Source of the DNA: Stentor roeselii
Taxonomy: Eukaryota > Ciliophora > Heterotrichea > Heterotrichida > Stentoridae
NCBI GenBank assembly: GCA_006503475.1
Contig: RSEH01000076.1
Coordinates: 1 to 64,000, forward strand
Reading direction: 5' to 3'
DNA: 64,000 nucleotides
Positions 1 through 24,482 of this stretch are shown here, piece by piece. How positions within the stretch are numbered: the first letter of the stretch is position 1; each line of letters starts with the position of its first letter. The position numbers and the translations under genes were made by a program. The notes below the pieces were generated by a model. It saw only the letters and a program-made list of their open reading frames with translations. It was not told the DNA's origin and made no database searches.

Positions 1-1827
1 TCCTATTTTGATCAGAATGGGTTCGAAGGTTGTGTCACAGAAAGGTTCAACAGTGACAAAATGACGAATATCCTGACATATCTAGCAAGAGAGATATCAA
101 CAAACTACCTCAACAACATCAAACTGCACTTTATTAAGTATGTTGAGAGGTTTGTTAATGTTCTCTACGGAAAAAGATCAGATCCCGCAAGGCAAGTCAG
201 CTTTAATCAAAATGCAGCTAGAGCCGCAAAGCATGCCATACTTAGCTTAGGCTCTGTTCCGGCGATTGTTCAACCTCACATACGATTTATCCTTCCACAG
301 AGGCCATTTTTGAAGGATAGCATCAAGTATGACCTAGAATGCAATCCTCAGGACTATCTGAGATGCATGGTCTACATGATGAAGTATGTAGAGTCACAGA
401 GAGAAAAGATCTATAGTGTCTTTCCTCTCAGGACTCAGCTATCACCAGGGTACATTACGCTGGACACCAACTCGCTGCTAACGCTCTTGGGGACAAGACA
501 AAATGGGTACTGTCAGACAAACTTTCGTCATAAAGGTGGGATCAAGTCAAATAAGGAAGATATTTGGGCAGCTTTCTTCGAAACTTCTAAAGCTTGCTTC
601 AAAAAGAGAGGCTATAGTTTCAATCATATGATTGATACTGATGGATTTGCTTGCTCAATAATCTTCTCAAAGGTGAAAAATCCTTTTGAACCACCTCAAG
701 ATGATCTCTACATTGAATCTGTTTGCAGAAAAAAACTCATTGAAAAGCGACTAGTTTCAGTTGATCCTGGAGTAAACAGTCCATTGACCTTCATCTCAAG
801 ACGGCCTGAGAAACGGAAAAAAAATCGAGAAAGTGAGGAGAGCGATCAAAAAGAAGAATACAAGGAAAGTGAAGAAAGTGAAGAGAGAGAAGAAAGTGGA
901 GAAAGTGAAGAGAGAAAAGAAAGTGAAGAAAGCGAAAAAAGTGAAGAACGCAAGAAAAGTGAAAAAATCGATTTTTTTGATGAAATCGAACAAAAGTACT
1001 TGTCATTAAAAAGAACGATTTACCCAGAGCAAAGAGACGATTGCAGGTTAATTGAGGAAAGTGAGGAAAGCGAGGAAGGAGAGGAAAGCGAGGAAGAAAA
1101 GAATTCATCAGCGAAAGCAAACAGAAAACGAGAAAACTACACGACCTTCAGGTACACTATGAAGCAAAGAATCCATGAAACAAAAAGATTAATTTACGAA
1201 AAGCGTAGAGACGACGAAAAGTCGAATACTCGTTTTTATGGAAGAACGGTTAAACAATGGGAAGCTACCCTTAGTTCCCATGACAGTAAAACTCTTAATC
1301 GGAATTCGTTCATGCAATACTTGATTGCAAAAAACGAAGTGAACAAAGTTTTACTCGACTTTTATGCCAAGGACCTCTTCAGAAAACTTAAGTGGTACGC
1401 TTATATCAATAAGCAAAGATCGGAGGCTAAACTGATCAAAGGATTTAAGCAAAAATTTGGTGGTCCAGATGAAGTTTTTGTAGGTTTCGGAGATTGGGAG
1501 GCAGCTGCTCACATGAGATTCAAGCATCCAGTCAAAGGCAAAGGCTACAGAACACTGTTTAAGAGAGCAGGATACAATATCTGTCTAGTCGATGAATTCA
1601 AAACCAGCTCCTACTGCTCCAACTGCCAAAACGGTGATCAAGATAGCAAGATGTCCAACGCAAGGGACGAAGATGGGAACTCTATTCACAGCCTTCTCAT
1701 TTGTAAAAAATGTAGAATACTGTGGAATAGAGATATTAATGGTGCCATCAACATCCTGAAATGCCTGGAGATGAAAAAAGCTGGAAAAAAGCGTCCGAAG
1801 TTTCTCAGACGCCAAAGTTCTCCATAG
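1..1827 (+). CDS. Fanzor (eukaryotic TnpB-like RNA-guided nuclease), 5' end outside window
   Basis: This gene encodes the body of a Fanzor, the eukaryotic relative of the TnpB/OrfB nuclease of IS200/IS605 elements. The frame is open from base 1, and the residues before the first ATG (position 61) read as normal protein, so I infer the true start lies upstream; residues below count from that ATG. RuvC-I is the VDPG motif (D235). The usual RuvC-II glutamate strand reads FGDWEA, and the glutamate in VDEFKTS (E512) fits the relocated catalytic Glu reported for Fanzors. A zinc ribbon follows (C519, C522, C548, C551), and RuvC-III is RDINGA (D558). All catalytic and zinc residues are present, so it looks intact. 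A Ser/Glu-rich insert of about 100 residues sits between RuvC-I and RuvC-II. No transposase lies beside it in the window. The stop is TAG. Confidence 0.85.
   Translation, partial: SYFDQNGFEGCVTERFNSDKMTNILTYLAREISTNYLNNIKLHFIKYVERFVNVLYGKRSDPARQVSFNQNAARAAKHAILSLGSVPAIVQPHIRFILPQRPFLKDSIKYDLECNPQDYLRCMVYMMKYVESQREKIYSVFPLRTQLSPGYITLDTNSLLTLLGTRQNGYCQTNFRHKGGIKSNKEDIWAAFFETSKACFKKRGYSFNHMIDTDGFACSIIFSKVKNPFEPPQDDLYIESVCRKKLIEKRLVSVDPGVNSPLTFISRRPEKRKKNRESEESDQKEEYKESEESEEREESGESEERKESEESEKSEERKKSEKIDFFDEIEQKYLSLKRTIYPEQRDDCRLIEESEESEEGEESEEEKNSSAKANRKRENYTTFRYTMKQRIHETKRLIYEKRRDDEKSNTRFYGRTVKQWEATLSSHDSKTLNRNSFMQYLIAKNEVNKVLLDFYAKDLFRKLKWYAYINKQRSEAKLIKGFKQKFGGPDEVFVGFGDWEAAAHMRFKHPVKGKGYRTLFKRAGYNICLVDEFKTSSYCSNCQNGDQDSKMSNARDEDGNSIHSLLICKKCRILWNRDINGAINILKCLEMKKAGKKRPKFLRRQSSP
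811..1115 (+). repeat. Degenerate GAAAGTGAAGAA repeat inside the Fanzor gene
   Basis: Two blocks (about 825-965 and 1055-1100) repeat a purine-rich 9-12 bp unit of the type GAAAGTGAAGAA. They encode Ser-Glu-Glu runs in the Fanzor. The repeat stays in frame and the nuclease motifs on both sides stay in register. It behaves as a coding minisatellite, probably a disordered acidic loop. The open frame on the opposite strand is a by-product of the purine bias. Confidence 0.8.
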
Positions 1828-1852
1828 AAGATTACTCTAAGCTGCTAGTAAT
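1791..1852 (+). other. Two small inverted repeats at the Fanzor 3' end (possible guide-RNA start)
   Basis: GCGTC at 1791-1795 pairs with GACGC at 1808-1812 across a 12-nt loop at the end of the coding region. ATTACT at 1831-1836 pairs with AGTAAT at 1847-1852 just after the stop. In TnpB and Fanzor systems the guide RNA comes from the 3' end of the nuclease gene and the adjoining element end, so the place fits. The stems are short and could be chance. Confidence 0.2.
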
Positions 1853-2765
1853 ATTGAGACGATTTCCTTTTGATAATTATACCTAATAAAAATTGAAAGA
1901 AACCTTATTTAATTTTAATCATATTGATTCATTCACCTTAAAATTTACTTCCCTGCTAAGATTTATTATATATATTCTCGTAGTTTGATTAATTAAATGA
2001 AAGAAGATTATTTTAAATAAATGCAAACGATTCTGGATATTAAATAATAGTATTTCAGTAAGATTTATAAGAAACTAATGGTACAAGAATTTTTTGGTTA
2101 ATATATTATATAAAAGAAAATTAAATAACTGCAAGACTCAAGTACTTTTTAAACAATTTAATATACATTTTCTATTAATTATCTGAGTAAATTTTTCATC
2201 AATGATAAACGAATCGTTTTAATAAGAGCTATAATTAACTAAACCAGAAACTAAAATTTTAGATTATATATATCTAGACTAGTTTGTTTTACTCCTTTAA
2301 TTACAAGTTTAGAATAATAAAATTTTGTTAGGTGTTTGATTTAAATTTCAAACTTTTTAGATAAAGTTCTTAACTTAATTTAAATAAAATTGAGATAAGT
2401 TTGATACCTACGATTACAAAAATCATATAATTATAAAACTTATAAATTTCATATGAAATTTATTTAATAATATCTATATTGCTTACACGAACAATTTTAA
2501 TTCCACTTCAAAATTAATTTCGAAATGTAAAACAATATTGATTTAAATCAAGATTATAAAAATTAATCAAGTTTATCATAGTTTAATTTAATTAAAACAA
2601 TATTTTTTAAATAGTTAATCTTCAAAGTTACCTATCCAAATTTCCCCACACCAAACTAAAAAATAAAAAAAATCCCTAAAAAAACCCATACTTTCTCTCT
2701 AAATCAAATAATTCTAAACCCAACTCCAAAAAATCACAAAATCCAAAATCCCGTAAAATAAACAA
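1853..2765. other. AT-rich intergenic gap, then a G-free leader
   Basis: About 0.9 kb of very AT-rich DNA with no gene, tRNA or clear repeat that I can support. It could hold the end of the Fanzor element and its guide RNA, but I see no terminal inverted repeat. The last part (2628-2767) has a single G in 140 nt on the sense strand of the next gene and includes a CCCTAAAA motif near 2675; it is probably the leader or promoter of the SFT2 gene. Confidence 0.6.
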
Positions 2766-3236
2766 ATGAAAAACTATTTCCCAATGACCAAAAAAGAAGA
2801 AGACACAGGCGATGCTTTTTTCCCCTCCTTGTCTCTAACAGAGCGTTTGATAGCTTTCGGTGCGTGCATGTGCATAAGTATCGTCCTAGACATTCTAGCC
2901 TGGTTCTCAGTGATAAAGATAATAGCCGGTCGTCCTGAGACATTCGCGATTTGTTTTTCTTTAGGAATCCTTGTATCTTGGACAGGTTCAGGTTTTCTCA
3001 TCGGTTTCAAGCGTCAATTCCGAATGATGTTCAAGCCAAGTCGCATTCTAACTACAATAATCTTCCTTTGCGCTTTAGCCCTGACCTTGATTTCCGCTTT
3101 GATCCTGAAAAACCGTCTCTTAACATTAATCTTCATGATAATCGAGATCCTCGCTTACACCTGGTACGTTTTAAGCTACCTGCCCTTTGCCCAGCGATTT
3201 GTGATAAAGCTTTGTGGAGCCTGGTGTAAAGACTAA
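2766..3236 (+). CDS. SFT2: SFT2-family vesicle transport membrane protein
   Basis: A 156-residue four-helix membrane protein of the SFT2/GOT1 family, which acts in vesicle fusion with the Golgi. The family signature is visible: SLSLTERLIAFG leads into helix 1, helix 2 carries FSLGILVSWTGSGFLIG, the loop has the conserved Gly/Lys/Phe pattern around FKRQFRMMFKPSR, then two more helices ending in WYVLSYLPFAQ. The length is typical for the family. It starts at the first ATG after a G-free leader, and the next gene begins 26 nt after its stop on the same strand. Open frames overlapping it on either strand are shadows. Confidence 0.88.
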   Translation: MKNYFPMTKKEEDTGDAFFPSLSLTERLIAFGACMCISIVLDILAWFSVIKIIAGRPETFAICFSLGILVSWTGSGFLIGFKRQFRMMFKPSRILTTIIFLCALALTLISALILKNRLLTLIFMIIEILAYTWYVLSYLPFAQRFVIKLCGAWCKD

Positions 3237-16011: not shown

Positions 16012-19000
16012 TTATCTATCAAAAGCCTTCGTTGTATTAGTATCCACCGGATTTTCAATACACTCATTTTCAACCTTTCCTCTTCTCATTAAAATTTTCC
16101 CAGCCTGAACCTCGAAGCAGTTCATGACAAATCCAGCGATTCCAAAAAGTCCAGAAACAGTTCCAAGCAAAGTTCCAAGAAAAAACAAAAAATCTTGCCT
16201 TAAAAGCCTTGTAGTTAAAAGTCCAGTGGAGCTTAAATCAATGAAAACTTTGACATAAAGTCCATAAACAACAGGCAAATCATGAGGTTTAAACTGACTT
16301 CCTTTCACAGGTCTTGTCATTTCAGAGATATGAAAGCCAGTTTCTTGACTAGGCCATTCTTTAGCCTCAGATTTAAACAAAGAAGGAGTGGCTAAGAATG
16401 AGAACTTGTTTGGATCTTTTCCGATAAAAACAAAGCCTTCAGTGGCTTTGATAGAAGAGTGAATCGAGCTGATCTGATTAGGAATAGAAGAGCTGCAAGT
16501 TAAGTTCACTTCAATGGCAGAGGCGTAACTAAGAGGTTCAGTGATACTTAAGCTGATAGAAGCTCCTGTTTGAATAGTCCCTTTCTGGAAAAAGACGGTT
16601 AATTTGCAGGTCTCGTTGTTGATGAACTTAAACGATTCAAATTTCTTTGAATATTGGATACCTTCTAATGTTTGAGATATTGATGAAATGAACCATGGAC
16701 TTTCACAGTCACCGCCATAAGATCGAAGAAATAACTGAACTGACATTTCTTTAAACTTGAAATAAGACACTTCAGAACTCAACACAACCAAAGGCACCAG
16801 GCCTTTAGACTCCTGAACATTCGCATTAAAGTAACTGAGAGTAGTAACACATGTCATCAAAAGAGCAGCAATAACAAATAAAAATGAAAAGCAAGCCCCA
16901 GTTTTATTTTTTCTTTTAATTAAAAAAGAGTTTTCTTTATTTTCATGTTTATCTTCAAAAAGGTCGAAAAATTTCAGCTTGTTTCTGAGATTTTTAATCA
17001 TCAGGAAGACTATCAATATAAGAAATAGTGGAACACTTACTAAAGTTTGGTAAATGATGATTTTTTCTCTTAGTTCAGGTTCTTCGTACAGCCTCGGCTG
17101 GACACTGTCGTTCATGTAAGTGCTTAAGTCATCTAAAGGTGCTTTTGACCCCACCAAACAAGTCTTATTCTCAGGGCAGGCCTTGCAAGAAGAGGCTCCA
17201 GGCACATCACTGAAACTTCCTTGGCTGCAAGGCAAACACTGACATTCATTAGTCGACCCTGACTGATTATTATAAGTCCCTGGACGACATTCAGTGCACT
17301 TCAAACTTCCAAATTTATCAGAAAAAGTTCCTACTTCACAAGGCTTGCATTTTTTTTCTTCTACTCTTGTACCTCTCGAGCATAAAGGCTGGCAACCTAG
17401 TTCTGAGCATATTTCTTCGATGTTGATTTCTAGTAATAAATTGTGACCGATTTTTGATAGTAACGTGTTTCCTGATACGATACCGCCACCGAAGACGAAT
17501 AATGACTTGTGGAAGTAAACGAAACCTGAACCGTAAAGCCATAGGTCGAAATCGGTTTTTAGAACTTTTTCTTCTGATCCTGGACTGAGAAGTCGGATTT
17601 TTTTACGAAATGTTTGCATCCAGGCTTGTCCTCCCATTGTGAGGAAGGAACCGTTTATGAAGGCTTGAATTGATTGGCTTGAATCCATGTTGTTTAGCGA
17701 GTGATTATGGTATTCTGACCAGGTTGAGGATGACAAGTTAAAATAGTCAATTTTCGTTGAAGGTTGTTCAGAATGATAAGCTCCCAAAGACACAAAAAAC
17801 CGATCATTCTCAATCCAGCAATAAGGATACTGAACTTTCCTCAACCCAACAGAAAGAAGTCGATAACTGCAATTTCCAATCTGAAATTCCCACAACTCAT
17901 CAGAATTAACAGAGCCAATATTCCCTCCATAAATATAAATCTTTTTCTCTTTCATAACCAAACAAGCCCCTTTTGCCGGTCTGGGTTTTTCAACAGAAGA
18001 AGCATCGAGTTGGTTCCAAGTAAGAGTAAACTCATTGAAAATAAACAAATCATTTTTCATTCCACTCGAATCTTCCCCGCCCCAAACGACGAAGGCGCTT
18101 CCATCAGATCCAGCAGCATGAAGATAACGAGCAGAAGGAAGACTTCCTTTGGCGTCAACATTTTTCCAAGTCCGATTAACCATGTCAAAAGCCCACAAAT
18201 CACCGAAAATCGTCTCAGAGTTCATTCCTCCAAATAAGTAAAAATTTGAATTGATAGTCACCATTGTATGACGAGTTCTCGACTGGGGCATGACGATTTT
18301 TTCATTGATTACTTTGAAGGTAAAGGTTTGTAAGTCGATTTCTAACAAGCTATTGTAACTTTTATCAGAAGATTTTTTCGAACCTCCGAAAAGATACCCT
18401 TTGTTTTTGATTTTGACGAGAGAGTAAGAGTTACTTGCCTCTTCCGGCATTGTTTTCAGCACTTCCCAAGCCTTGTTAGTTGTTTTTAGATTGATTTTCA
18501 CGATATCTTCAGCATCTGTGCTGTTATGATAGAGCCATCCGAACAGCAGAAAAAGTTCATCATTGAAAATCAAGCTTTTTCCGAAGTGTCTGCATTCAAA
18601 AGTCCTAGATTTGTTAGAAATGACAGTCCATTCCTTCCTTTCCAGGGAGTAGCTGTAAAGGTACCCAAGACAAGGAAGTCCTAGATTAGGAACCCCTGGG
18701 ACTTGAAGGATGCTTCCTTGATAGTAATGAATATGTGAACCCTTATCAGCACCTGGAGCCTCGCCGTTCATTTCAAGCGCTTCCCAAGCCATCTTTTCTA
18801 AATCCAGCCTATTTAAACCTACCTGTGCATATCATTCGAGTTGCCATTCAAGGTAATTCCTCCTTGGACCAAAAAGAACTCTTTTCCATTTTCCAAAAAA
18901 CTGGTATACCCAAAAATCGCTCTAGGAATAGGAGCATTCTTCATGTAAAGCTTTTCCCATTTCATATACTTGAAGTCGAACACCCAGAAATCGTTTTCAG

Positions 19001-19340
19001 GTCCAAAAATCGTTCTTCCTCCGAAGATGTAAAACTTTTCATCGATGCTGCTGCAGAAACCTCCTGAATTTTGACGTGGAGCTGATTGGATATTACTTGG
19101 AGAGTCTGTTGACAATGGAATTATTTCTTGCCAGTGAAGGTTTGTAAGGGAAAATTCCCAGATATCGTTGAGACTGTTGGAATTGTCCCAACCTCCGAAG
19201 ACTATCAAAGATGACCGGGGGAGGAGGAAGTCCAGGAAGCTGTGGGCTCGGCAGGAGGGAGGAGACCTTGTTGATGGAATGAATGTTGGTAGGAAGGAGT
19301 GACAAGAGAGGAGAAGGGTTAGGGTTACTGTGAGTTTCAT
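16012..19340 (-). CDS. Kelch / Cys-rich multi-pass membrane protein, copy 1
   Basis: Two exons (19340-18823 and 18808-16012) joined by a 14-nt intron encode 1104 residues. The N-terminus is a signal peptide (KLTVTLTLLLSCHSF). About 600 residues of kelch repeats follow (GG motifs with W six residues after a Tyr/Phe strand). The splice itself rebuilds a kelch strand, NDMHRLDLEKMAW. A Cys-rich region like ephrin-receptor GCC2/GCC3 repeats (about 645-735; CRPGTYNNQSGSTNEC, CSQGSFSDVPGASSC) leads to a membrane helix (about 750), a second (about 815), a lumenal or external region, and a last helix (about 1060). It is probably a surface or secretory-pathway receptor. A paralogue lies directly upstream. 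Confidence 0.85.
18809..18822 (-). other. 14-nt intron in kelch gene copy 1
   Basis: The sense-strand sequence is GTAGGTTTAAATAG. Removing it joins two frames that differ by two, and gives an uninterrupted kelch motif. No GT-AG alternative of 15, 16 or 17 nt in the neighbourhood restores the frame. An A lies six bases from the 3' end, as in the other introns here. Confidence 0.7.
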
Positions 19341-19517
19341 TTTAGTTATGGTGTAGAAATATGATGGTGGTTTTAAATTATTTGATTAGATGACTAGTTG
19401 GAAAATGGATTATGGTTAAATTTCAGAAGATTAGAAGATGATTGAGAATTAATTGAAATCAATCTTGATGATCTTCTGGTACTGATCATATGATAATCTC
19501 TTTAATTAGCTTTTAAA
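19341..19517. other. Spacer between the two kelch genes
   Basis: There are 177 bases between the stop of copy 2 and the start of copy 1. It is AT-rich with no coding or RNA feature visible. It must hold the 3' end signals of one gene and the promoter of the other. Confidence 0.5.
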
Positions 19518-22500
19518 CTACTCAGGATTCGTATAAACTGGCAAGACCTTCAGATTTTTCACAGCTTTTCCAGATTTTCCTCTTCTTTTATCAAAAACAT
19601 GAGTAAGATCCTTTAACTTCCGAGCATTCCTTTTTGTTGTTTCTTTCCTCTGATACCGATCAACCAGTATCTCACAAAAGCTCATACTTCCAGCAAAAGT
19701 TCTCATAAGTCCAAAGATAGATCCAAGTAAAGCACTGATTAAATTAAGCCAAGTTTGTTTAACATATCTTTGAGTTTCCATTGCTGTTTCGCTTTGAGTG
19801 ATCACAATGCCTGCCCCCATAAAGCTTTGAATCGCGACGCTTTTTTTCCCTTACAATTCATTTGAGAACAGTGAGCCAATGTGAGGGTCTTGGCTTGTGT
19901 AGATGTGAAAACCGGTTTCTTCACTCGGCCATTCTGATGACTGCGAATAAAAGACCTGCATGAACAGTACTGAAGGCATTAACTTGAAGTAAAATCGCGT
20001 CGGGATCAATCCTTTGAACACCTGGTTCTCATTTGGAGATTTCAATGATGTGAAGACACTGCTGATTTTTTCAGGAATTGATGATGACGATGAAATATTT
20101 ACACTGATACCTGAAGCGTAGCTTTCAGTTTCATATAACTTGAACCAAATATGCGCTTCTTTTGAAATCATCTTGAAATTAGAAAATCTCAAAAAAAGAA
20201 TGCAGTTGTTGATGACCTTGAAACATTTTAACTCATCAACTTTAGAAGAAAATCCTTTTATTTCATAGTCAATCAAACGGATGCACTTACCATCCTTGAC
20301 ACATTTTCCTCCATACATATAAAAAGTCATGTTCACAGTCAAGAACTCCGCAGAAACCTCTTCTTTCAACACAACGACTGGCACAGTTCCTCTCACTTCA
20401 ATCACATTATCTAACTGAAAGTTAAGCATAGACAAGCTGATTATCACACAGCAGCCAACAATGAAAGAAACTGAAAAAGCGCCTCCGATTTTAGTCTTTT
20501 TTAACATGATAGGTTTGTTCAGTTCTTTTTTGTGACTTGCTGAAAAAATATCGACTTTTGGCAGAAACTTAATAGTTCGAGTCGATGAGATAAAGAAAAG
20601 CAACCCGATGATCATGAGGACTGAAAAAACTATCCAGATGAAGGAGGTAAGAGTTGAAATGTAACTTTTTTTTACTTTGTAGCTTGAAGGTTGAATTGTT
20701 TCATTCGCTGGAAGGGTGAAACTGCTTTTCACTTGAGAGGAACCCACTGGACATGCTGACTTGTCGGAACAATCAAGACAGTATCTTGAACCTGATTTGC
20801 TTGAAAAGCTTCCAAATGCGCAAGGAGTGCATTGGTCTTTTTTTGTTGAAGCTAGTAAATCGTTTTGTGTTCCTGGTGGACATGGTTCGCAGATATTATT
20901 CGAAAAGTACGTGCCTCTTGGACATAAATCACAGTTTTTTCCGAATGTGCCTTCGCTACAGTTTAAGGTTAATGGGTCGGTGATGGTAAATGATATTTTA
21001 TAGATGTTGTTGTAGAGCTTTATTAAGGATTTGTAAAAATCGTTTAGACCTGTTCCTCCGAATAAGAAAATTGAGTTTTTGTAGTGGACTGCTGAATGGC
21101 CTGCTAAAGTTATTTCGTTGGTTGTTTGAATTATCTCGCAATAACCAGTAGTTAAATCATAAACAAAAACAGGATTCAGCATTAACAAATCATAAAGATA
21201 CCCTCCTATTGAAATTAACTTATCATTCTCTTTAATAACAGTTGAATACTCCTTAAACAAACAGAGAGGATTATTGATAGGCTTATAATTTTTTTCAATG
21301 ACACTAAGATCAGTAAAATTGATTTTAAAATAATAAATTAGTTCATTAGGCATAGAAATTATATCCGATCCTCCAACAACAATCAATTTAACAGCTTCGC
21401 CCTGATCTTTTTCCATCCAACATTTCGCAGCACTGATATCAGAAGAAAATAAATTTTCAGCAATCATCTTAAACTCATTACTATCAAACTGATAAACCCA
21501 AAGATCATTATTTCCCTTCATCGCAGAATTCCCTCCAACAATAAACAACAAATTAATATAAGACACCATACAAGAGTTCGACCTTGGAGTTATCCGGACA
21601 CTGAGAGGTTCAACTTTAAACCAAAATTTCTTCGGTTCATAAAACCAATACAAGTCATTATAAAAGGTGTTTTCATTCTCTCCTCCAAAGACTGCTAATC
21701 TATTCGATCCCAATTTACAGCAAGAGTAAAATTTTCGGTTTATAGGAGCATCACCTGAAGTTATAAAAAATTCCCAGGTTAGTGTTTCCAGGTCGAATCT
21801 CCAGAAATCATTAAAAAATACGTCTGGGTCTTCTTCATTGAAATTTCCACCTCCGAAGAGATACATGTATTGGTTGATGACTATACTGCAATGATGGGAC
21901 CGGGGTGAAGGTGAAAGGAAATTTTCAGTTTCTTGGACCATTACAAGTTCCTTTAGATCGAAACTTTGAATAGAGTTGAAAGTTGCTTCAAAGTTCCTTC
22001 CGTAGAGAATATAAACTTTTTGATTTATCTGGACTGAAGAAGATCCCATGACAGGAATTCCGACAAATCCTTCAACTTTTTTCCAGGTTTTATTTAAAAA
22101 GTTGAATTTATTGATTTCATTGTAAGCAGTCATATTTTCCTCAAAGTAACCATAAATGACTATCATTTCATCTTGATGGATAAAAGAATAATGAGATTTC
22201 CTTGGTGCAGGTCTTTCACCAAGGACTTCAACGATTTCCCATTCTTCTTTAGTTAAATCATAGCGAAAGATCTCATCATTTGAGTCTTCACTGTAAGGTA
22301 CATATCCATAAATATAAAGAGAATTTTCATAAAAGACCATAGATCCAACTGACCTCGGCTTTGGAATATTTCCTCTTTTCGGCATTTTTCTGCTGTGCAA
22401 GGTATTGACATTAATGCTAAATTTCACTTACAAGTATAAGTCGTTTTGAAGTCCCAGTTCTGAGATACCTCCAAATAATGCGAAATAATGAGTTTCATTA

Positions 22501-22916
22501 TAAACAAAGTCAGTTGTGAATAATAAAGAACTGTCCAGTAATGAATCTCCTGTGTAGGACTCCACAGTCCAAGCATGATTTACTAAGTTGAAAGACATTA
22601 TTCCAGTGTTGAATCCAAATAGCAGGATTTTTCGATCATCTCTTAAAAACATTGAATGCGCATTGAATGAATTCGGGATAAAATCTGAGAGCTTGTTTAA
22701 TCTTTCAAAGGTTTTAGAATCGAGGTTATATGAAATTATGTTGGGCTTTTGATCGTTTGTGACTGAATCTATACCACCTATTGTAATGATTCTGTTTAGA
22801 AGAGGATCGTAGACTGATGATGAAAAGTAGATGCTGTTTGGAGGAGTTTTATGTCTTGGAATACTTTCAATTGATAATGATGATGCCTTTAGAAAGATTA
22901 TGAACAGCATTTTCAT
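19518..22916 (-). CDS. Kelch / Cys-rich multi-pass membrane protein, copy 2
   Basis: Three exons (22916-22432, 22416-19855, 19839-19518) joined by two 15-nt introns encode 1122 residues with the same layout as the next gene: signal peptide (MLFIIFLKASSLS), kelch repeats (LYIYGYVPY, MYLFGGGNF, LAVFGGENE, LFIVGGNSA, IFLFGGTGL), a GCC2/GCC3-like Cys-rich part (about 660-740; CPPGTQNDLLASTKKDQC), two membrane helices, a region with the same VVVLKEEVS and ETGFHI signatures as copy 1, and a C-terminal helix (LISALLGSIFGLMRTFAGS). The cytoplasmic tail is basic. The pair arose by tandem duplication; they have diverged greatly and their introns lie at similar but not identical places. Confidence 0.88.
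19840..19854 (-). other. 15-nt intron in kelch gene copy 2
   Basis: GTAAGGGAAAAAAAG on the sense strand. It contains the in-frame TAA that would otherwise end the protein before its last membrane helix. Splicing gives EFVAIQSFMGAG, and copy 1 has a homologous last helix in one frame, which supports it. Confidence 0.88.
22417..22431 (-). other. 15-nt intron in kelch gene copy 2
   Basis: GTAAGTGAAATTTAG on the sense strand, containing an in-frame TAA. Removal joins NDLYF to INVNTLHSRKM within a kelch strand. It is close to the site of the 14-nt intron of copy 1. Confidence 0.9.
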
Positions 22917-24482
22917 CTTATTATTAGATTTTTGGTTTTGGAGAGAAAATGTTTGGGTGTTATTAAGCTTTTTTTTGTTTTGGATTTTTATATTTAAGTC
23001 AATATCAGGGAAGCTAATGCAAATTACTTATTTTTAACTATGAAGTAAGAAACTTTAGTTTTAAGTTTTATACTAAAAGTTCTATTTGGCCTACCATTTC
23101 AAATCATGGAATTTTCATCAAATGCTAGACAATCCAAAAGGTTTAAATCTCTATTCTCTTGAATTTCTCAATAGATTAATTTTAAAGATTAAAATAATTT
23201 AGTAGAGATTAAAACTTGTAAACTATAAGTTTTAATCAATTCTTTTATCAATTTGAACAAAGATTTTTTTATAAGATTAAAGTCATTATTTGGATCAGAA
23301 TTCAATATAAATATATTCAAACTCTTCATGAATCAACCTAATTCCTTTAAATCAAACTCGACTCATTAGCATTTTATGAATTTTCACAAAATAATAAATA
23401 CTCTTCTAAATGATAAGTAACATGACAATAATTAGTTTAAGTTTAGCCTGGCTTATCCCTTATCAAATATTAGAGTATCATATTTTTTAAATAAGTTATT
23501 TGGTAAAATGATATAAGTTTATTCAAATGCGAATTTTAAATAGATAAATCTAACAAATTACATAAAAAAAGAATAAAAGCAGTCCTTCTTTTGCAGAAAT
23601 TTAGTTCTAATGTTAATTTGTATAAAAATTTTAGATCATATTTTTTAGAGAAAAGATTAAAGCATGATGTTAACTCAACCACGGTGTAAACTGGCACAAC
23701 TTATATAATTTCTTTAGAAATCTTTAAATTTTTTGAAATTATTCATCAATTGGATAAATTTTGAAATATTTTCTTGAGTGATAAAATAGTAACAGTTACA
23801 TAAAGTTAATATTGATCTTGGTAACCCTTAATCTTGATTTCTTAAACGGGTTGAAGATAAGGGTTCTTTTTCTGCATAAATTAGCATTAAGTTCTTGGGT
23901 GGGCCATTCACTAGACCTAGTTCATTATATGACAAAAGCTTGCGATTATAACCTACCACTAGTCGCTTGAGTATTATTCAAATAACAAATCAAGTCCAAT
24001 AATTTCTGTTTTTCTAAAAGATTGATCATAAAAGTAAGACTTATGATTCAAATAAAAAATTGTAAGTTTTTCCAATATTTTTTTACTTAGTTTGAAAGTC
24101 AAGTTTTAGTGTTAGTAAATTTGTAGATAAGTCAATTCCTCCAATAATGAAATCCTGCAAAGTTTGTTTAATAAACTTTTAGAAAATAGCTGTAATTAGA
24201 ATTATTTAATGTGAACTATGCTATCTTGTAAAATGAATTTATATCTGGTTAATATTCTGAAATATCCTCAAGAAAAGATAGTTTAAATTTAGTTAGATAT
24301 ATTGATGATAGAAGATTAGCTAGATATATAGATGATAGAAGAATAATAATCAAAAAATTAATAACATCAAAATACTTCATCATCTCTAAACGCAATACCT
24401 TAAATCTATCTCAATGAAATTTCATTCTTAACTCGTTCGAACCCTTAAGTAACTAAAATTCTCATAAATCTTAAAATACATC
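22917..24482. other. 1.6-kb AT-rich gap
   Basis: No gene, tRNA or large repeat is supported. Near the right end, 24294-24342 holds two copies of a 22-base unit (TAGATATATNGATGATAGAA type) at a 27-base period. The stretch around 23810-23950 is somewhat less AT-rich (two segments around GGTAACCCTTAATC and GGGTGGGCCATTCAC) but encodes nothing recognisable. The region lies between the starts of copy 2 and the stop of the cyclic-nucleotide gene, both on the minus strand. Confidence 0.55.

What the first reader, a model, noticed from the sequence alone, without database searches (positions are those of the whole stretch)
1..1827. Intact-looking Fanzor in a ciliate macronuclear-type region
All RuvC and zinc-ribbon residues of a Fanzor are present (D235, relocated E512, D558, four Cys), so the nuclease may be active. 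In ciliates, mobile DNA is normally removed from the macronucleus, so a whole Fanzor beside ordinary genes suggests either a retained element or a gene kept for host use, perhaps in DNA elimination or defence. Only the motifs are seen; activity and role are inference.
Basis: partly seen in the sequence, partly recalled or inferred. Interest (0 to 1): 0.85.

Follow-up and report, generated by a model that had tools for sequence, protein, structure and literature searches.

The report
Multicopy Fanzor element in ciliate macronucleus
The end of this sequence carries most of a gene for an RNA-guided DNA-cutting enzyme (Fanzor1), part of a mobile element with at least nine near-identical ends in what looks like the working genome of a heterotrich ciliate, a place from which such elements are usually removed.

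Summary
Window 1-1827 encodes a Fanzor1: sequence search finds three solved Fanzor1s (SpuFz1 E 1.6e-26), and E532 and D578 align to SpuFz1 E541 and D606. It is not "whole": the contig begins inside the gene, and roughly 100-210 N-terminal residues are missing.

The last 76-130 bases up to window 1853 recur on eight other contigs with unrelated flanks (6 differences in 727 bases). In all nine the similarity stops at about 1853, 26 bases after the stop codon. This is a recently active mobile element, not a single-copy host gene. The eight contigs break there because of assembly: each break lies 77 bases before a variant or the junction.

The host is very probably a heterotrich macronucleus: CCCTAACA telomeres (619 matches, control 0), excess 15-base introns, standard code. 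Older Fanzor relics are decayed. I found no Tc1-type transposase, and the only reverse transcriptase looks like telomerase.

A retained element is supported; host use in DNA elimination or defence is not. Left end, mobilising enzyme, expression and activity remain unknown.

The parts
1..1827 (+). Fanzor1 ORF, 5' part missing (contig edge), TAG stop
637..645 (+). TDG motif (codons 213-215), named for the Fanzor1 WED domain
   Evidence: motif from PMC10711439 passages
763..765 (+). RuvC Asp of the DPG motif (D255; D235 from the ATG at 61)
   Evidence: DPG from PMC10711439 passages
799..1134 (+). Glu/Ser-rich insert in RuvC (112 residues: 38 Glu, 16 Ser), partly a 9-base tandem repeat
1594..1596 (+). 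RuvC Glu (E532), aligned to SpuFz1 E541
1615..1626 (+). first CxxC of the zinc ribbon (C539, C542)
1702..1713 (+). second CxxC of the zinc ribbon (C568, C571)
1732..1734 (+). RuvC Asp (D578), aligned to SpuFz1 D606
1724..1853 (+). right end of the mobile element, shared in part (76-130 bases) with eight other contigs; boundary at about 1853
1777..1853 (+). predicted guide-RNA scaffold (inference by analogy with SpuFz1 and GtFz1; folding no better than shuffles)
   Evidence: for the analogy; against
1854..1868 (+). predicted guide, i.e. host flank beside the element (inference)
   Evidence: for the analogy
1854..2765 (.). AT-rich host intergenic flank up to the next ORF (2766-3236, +)

Best explanation
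This is the right-hand part of a Fanzor1-bearing mobile DNA element that spread recently to at least nine sites in the somatic (macronuclear) genome of a Stentor-like heterotrich ciliate and is retained there. Shown: Fanzor1 homology and nuclease residues; nine near-identical right ends with one sharp boundary and unrelated flanks; an assembly with heterotrich-type telomeres. Inferred: the last ~75 bases before the boundary are transcribed as the scaffold of a guide RNA that runs ~15 bases into the host flank, so each copy's guide spells its own insertion site; when a transposase (not found) removes the element or a chromosome copy lacks it, Fanzor cuts the empty site and repair from an element-bearing copy restores the element, which thus keeps its place while spreading.
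For: Fanzor1. Nine right ends, E 7e-84 to 5e-33, 6 differences in 727 bases, common boundary. Flanks unrelated, no ORF of 100 codons or more reaching the junction. Break positions explained by 77-base overlaps. Telomeres. 15-base introns and standard code. Guide-RNA layout by analogy: PMC10432273 section. Maintenance role by analogy with TnpB in multicopy plasmids: PMC11870625 abstract.
Against: Left end, inverted repeats, target duplication and transposase were not seen. The right end does not fold better than shuffles (z -0.58 to +0.64). The far ends of the nine contigs carry no telomere (0 of 9) and 1 of 145 sampled ends did, so the macronuclear location of these contigs is inferred, not directly shown. 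Micronuclear residue is not excluded. The structure model was unusable (pLDDT 48). No expression data.
Confidence: 0.78

Rival explanations
1. Micronuclear residue: the element is germline-limited and normally removed from the macronucleus; its junctions come from contaminating micronuclear DNA.
For: Ciliate macronuclei are largely cleared of mobile DNA (PMC9942806, passages), and contamination was kept open for the Blepharisma retrotransposons. The Fanzor contigs show no telomere at the far end (0 of 9).
Against: The contigs run from gene-dense, uninterrupted sequence straight into the element; a dominant empty site should have let the assembly read through (inference). An empty-site search was not done.
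Confidence: 0.12
2. Domesticated host gene: the Fanzor is kept by selection for DNA elimination or defence.
For: Open frame of 608 codons with the nuclease residues kept; ciliates have domesticated transposases (PMC9942806, passages).
Against: At least nine near-identical right ends at unrelated sites with a sharp boundary; the two coding differences seen both change the amino acid.
Confidence: 0.04
3. Assembly artefact, contamination or a virus fragment joined to host sequence.
For: Eight of the nine right ends lie within 132 bases of a contig end; Fanzor1 occurs in giant viruses (PMC10432273, section).
Against: Nine different flanks joined at one base, with break points that follow the 77-base rule; diverged Fanzor pieces on other contigs of the same genome; two scans of viral contigs found no relative.
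Confidence: 0.03

Closest known systems
Fanzor1 of Spizellomyces punctatus (SpuFz1, Spu-1 element)
   Same: Best sequence match (1.6e-26); same Glu and Asp of the nuclease site; multicopy element with one Fanzor ORF near its right end (PMC10432273 section).
   Different: Spu-1 has ~30-base inverted repeats, 134 ghost copies and ~80 bases between stop and right repeat; here no inverted repeat or ghost copy was found, only 26 bases follow the stop, and there is a Glu/Ser insert.
Fanzor1 of Guillardia theta (GtFz1)
   Same: Locus without inverted repeats (PMC10432273 passages); guide RNA overlapping the last 17 codons, the layout predicted here (last 16 codons).
   Different: Weaker match (2.4e-8); Asn at the third nuclease position where this protein has Asp.
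Fanzor1 of Parasitella parasitica (PpFz1)
   Same: Strong match (3.7e-23); also has an insert of ~100 residues in RuvC.
   Different: In the alignment its extra residues fall further downstream (near window codon 460) than the insert here (codons 267-378); the insert here is Glu/Ser-rich.
TnpB of IS200/IS605 elements
   Same: Works-like: guide spells the insertion site and cutting of empty copies favours element-bearing ones in multicopy plasmids (PMC11870625 abstract).
   Different: Prokaryotic and tested there, not here; the window protein reaches 33.2 of the 100 bits required by the TnpB family model.

Membership tests
Fanzor1 | Sequence closer to Fanzor1 than to TnpB, Fanzor2 or Cas12 | tested here: met
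   Only Fanzor1 chains among the meaningful matches; profile of the C-terminal part: SpuFz1 1e-53, PpFz1 5e-50 (both contributed to that profile), GtFz1 7e-5, TnpB-like chains 0.2 or worse. Whether Fanzor2 chains are in that library was not checked.
Fanzor1 | RuvC site D, E, D with the DPG motif | tested here: met
   D255 by motif only
Fanzor1 | CxxC...CxxC zinc ribbon (TNB) | tested here: met
Fanzor1 | TDG motif in the WED domain | tested here: met
   codons 213-215 (motif)
Fanzor1 | REC domains with the Fanzor1 helices and conserved arginine | tested here: inconclusive
   N-terminal part off the contig; model unusable
Fanzor1 | Guide RNA made from the right end | tested here: inconclusive
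   conserved 77 bases before the boundary but no excess folding and no RNA data
Fanzor1 | RNA-guided cutting of DNA | not testable with these tools
   needs an experiment
Tc1/mariner-type transposon | Inverted repeats with TA target duplication | tested here: inconclusive
   all nine right ends finish in TA, but no inverted copy was found and the left end was not seen
Tc1/mariner-type transposon | Tc1-type (DDE_3) transposase in the genome | tested here: not met
   no match in the assembly (3 of 14 control genomes rang); contigs under about 10 kb seem to be missing
Macronucleus of a heterotrich ciliate (host) | CCCTAACA telomeres, tiny introns, standard code as in Stentor | tested here: met
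   telomere unit from PMC9942806, code of Stentor coeruleus from PMC10942620; the 15-base intron length of Stentor is recalled

The most novel reading that the evidence does not exclude
In this ciliate the Fanzor acts as an anti-elimination drive. Each element's guide matches its own empty site, so copies from which the element was excised in the developing or dividing polyploid macronucleus are cut and refilled from element-bearing copies. This would keep the family in a somatic genome in which I found no retroelement and no Tc1-type transposase.
Probability: 0.05. Interest if true: 0.9.

Novelty: new member of a known kind. Interest (0 to 1): 0.5.

Why it matters
Fanzors are known from fungi, other protists, plants, animals and viruses, but in the held library I found no paper describing one in a ciliate (listings; passages of one paper). 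A young, multicopy Fanzor family with its nuclease residues kept, in what looks like a macronucleus, gives a natural place to ask what Fanzor does for its element when the host carries many copies of each chromosome and has a system to delete foreign DNA. It also warns that the body of such an element can be missing from short-read assemblies, so Fanzors there are easily undercounted.

Tried and rejected
Left end. I searched for an inverted copy of the right tip. A 21-mer with up to 3 mismatches gave the 9 right ends and one chance site in a methyltransferase gene. A 12-mer with up to 1 mismatch gave 222 sites against 205 for the control, and the printed list was truncated. Of its 16 exact sites 7 are right ends; 5 of the other 9 were fetched and lie inside contigs, and the other 4 are on the minus strand and more than 2 kb from the contig start, so they do not have the place a left end would have. 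I then compared 145 contig ends for shared words: besides the right ends only gene families and one ordinary 77-base contig overlap appeared.

Structure: the AlphaFold2 model was too poor (mean pLDDT 48.3, pTM 0.27), so no fold search was run. Guide-RNA folding was not above shuffles in five stretches. Rfam gave only matches far below the gathering scores. Viral relatives: two scans, none confirmed. PiggyBac excisase: no match, but no control rang either, so this says nothing. Selection on codons was not tested; the copies overlap too little.

Chromosome breakage at the element was considered, because eight right ends are at contig ends, and rejected: the breaks follow a 77-base rule, and two unrelated contigs also overlap by 77 bases.

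Full report
What was claimed and what is there. The window is the first 64 kb of contig C499 (170,452 bases) of an assembly of 44,391,514 bases in 522 contigs. Its first 1827 bases are an open frame of 608 codons that begins before the contig does. Pfam recognises only the zinc-ribbon domain above its cut-off (1.9e-9), but phmmer against solved structures finds the Fanzor1 proteins SpuFz1, PpFz1 and GtFz1 (1.6e-26, 3.7e-23, 2.4e-8); the other two of five matches at E up to 1 are unrelated, and no TnpB or Cas12 chain is among them. The NCBIfam TnpB model is touched only through the same zinc-ribbon end, 33.2 bits against a cut-off of 100. In the alignment the window's E532 and D578 fall on SpuFz1 E541 and D606 with one tag offset of 394; these two are catalytic in the structure paper (PMC11423790, passages). 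D255 stands in the DPG motif named for Fanzors, and the TDG motif named for the Fanzor1 WED domain is at codons 213-215 (PMC10711439, passages). By the alignments about 107 (SpuFz1), 103 (GtFz1) or 200-213 (PpFz1) N-terminal residues are off the contig, so 'whole' cannot be claimed.

An insert. Between the DPG strand and the next RuvC block lies a 112-residue stretch with 38 Glu and 16 Ser, partly a 9-base tandem repeat in the DNA. In one search the extra ~100 residues of PpFz1 (presumably its FRI domain, which binds cyclophilin) fall further downstream, so this looks like a separate insertion. The piece of the relative on C461 lacks the Glu/Ser-rich stretch.

A mobile element. A search of the genome with window 1700-1870 returned nine places (9 candidates, 9 scored). 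Eight are within 132 bases of a contig end: C249, C268, C60, C130, C230, C319, C394 and C68; the ninth is the window, where the element runs off the contig start. Over 727 compared bases the eight differ from the window at six positions, and in all nine the common sequence ends with AGTAATA at window 1853, 26 bases after the stop codon; one or two further bases agree in some copies by chance or target preference. The first 1500 bases of the flanks share no detected similarity. On the side that can be seen, the first ORF of 100 codons or more lies 152 to 2727 bases away in eight of nine cases, and none is found within 4 kb in the ninth (C319); no listed ORF reaches the junction. Two of the six differences are coding, both first codon positions that change the amino acid (codons 601 and 607, read), too few to test selection. 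None of the nine places lies inside a contig away from an end except the window's own, so short internally deleted 'ghost' copies like the 134 of S. punctatus (PMC10432273, section) are not seen here.

Why the copies are at contig edges. Each of the eight contigs starts or stops exactly 77 bases before a position at which the copies differ (1801, 1819, 1842) or at which the flanks begin to differ (1854, 1855). Two unrelated contigs also share their last 77 bases (L158/L174). This is what an assembly graph with k = 77 gives when a repeat joins different flanks. Among the contigs whose lengths I saw the shortest is 10,043 bases, which suggests that contigs under about 10 kb were dropped, and the element's body with them. 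By the same logic the window's own start implies another variant near window 78 (inference).

The host. Three CCCTAACA units in a row, with up to one mismatch, occur 254 + 365 times (overlapping counts) against 0 for the reversed control. The output lists only the first of them; where I know the contig length or the place is at the contig start, they are terminal (C5, C31 and C59 ends; starts of C26, C40, C48, C56, C70). CCCTAACA is the telomere unit of the heterotrich Blepharisma (PMC9942806, passages). In 187,091 bases 9 of 42 candidate GT-AG joins are 15 bases long, while no other length from 12 to 40 has more than 4, and five other motif pairs show no count above 4 at any length. ORFs of 250 codons or more end in TAA 30, TAG 15 and TGA 12 times. 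Stentor coeruleus and Climacostomum use the standard code, Blepharisma does not (PMC10942620, passages). A Stentor-like heterotrich macronucleus is therefore very likely; no rRNA was found to name it. Against a direct proof: the far ends of the nine Fanzor contigs carry no telomere (0 of 9), and only 1 of 145 sampled ends, mostly contig starts, did.

Other Fanzors and other elements in this genome. Diverged relatives occur on C461, C504, C401 and C178. All four are broken by stops, frame changes or rearrangement, and C461, C401 and C504 share segments of 64-94% identity. The reverse-transcriptase family has one match, which I read as telomerase from its motifs, and the Tc1-type DDE_3 family has none. 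These searches see only the contigs held, so a young multicopy element would leave only its ends; they do not show that no transposon exists.

How it probably works. In S. punctatus the guide RNA is a 75-nt scaffold at the right end plus 14-15 nt of flank, and in GtFz1 it overlaps the last 17 codons (PMC10432273, section). Here 77 bases before the boundary cover the last 16 codons, the stop and the 26-nt tail, so the GtFz1 layout fits, and the guide would be window 1854-1868. Folding gives no support beyond chance. By analogy with TnpB, which cuts plasmid copies lacking the element and so biases inheritance (PMC11870625, abstract), the most likely role is selfish maintenance of the element. 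That step is inference.

The review on RNA-guided DNA elimination mentions Fanzor once, as a comparison (PMC12203969, passages). Elements in a heterotrich macronuclear assembly have a precedent: more than 30 non-LTR retrotransposon copies in Blepharisma, with micronuclear contamination still to be excluded in that paper (PMC9942806, section). The same caution applies here, though contigs that run into the element, and not through an empty site, argue for retention.

Novelty. Fanzor1 is known in protists, and SAR hosts are mentioned in its branches (PMC10432273, section). In the held library 'Fanzor' with 'ciliate' gave 5 papers (4 listed) and 'Fanzor' with 'macronucle' 1 paper, none about a ciliate Fanzor as judged from titles, abstracts' starts and, for PMC12203969, passages; a wider search listed 15 of 182 papers, again none. 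The supplementary tables of the Fanzor survey and the second survey paper could not be read, so ciliate members may be listed there. I file it as a new member of a known kind.

Noticed in passing
C461, C401, C504 (L027-L032): Old, broken Fanzor pieces lie in segments shared between these contigs at 64-94% identity; on C401 the pieces are out of order (query 350-492, then 32-258, then 571-605).
   Followed up: partly
C178:207071-207208 (L033): A short relic closer to the window family (77% DNA identity over 127 aligned columns) sits between two intact host genes; it has stops.
   Followed up: partly
window 22417-22431 (-): A likely 15-base intron (GTAAGTGAAATTTAG) joins the frames 22428-23027 and 19851-22427.
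   Followed up: no
window 16012-22427 (-): Two large neighbouring frames share Kelch repeats and an ephrin-receptor-like domain, perhaps a local duplication.
   Followed up: no
C147:27571-27900 (-), L086: The only RVT_1 match of the assembly lies in a 945-codon frame that reads like telomerase reverse transcriptase.
   Followed up: partly
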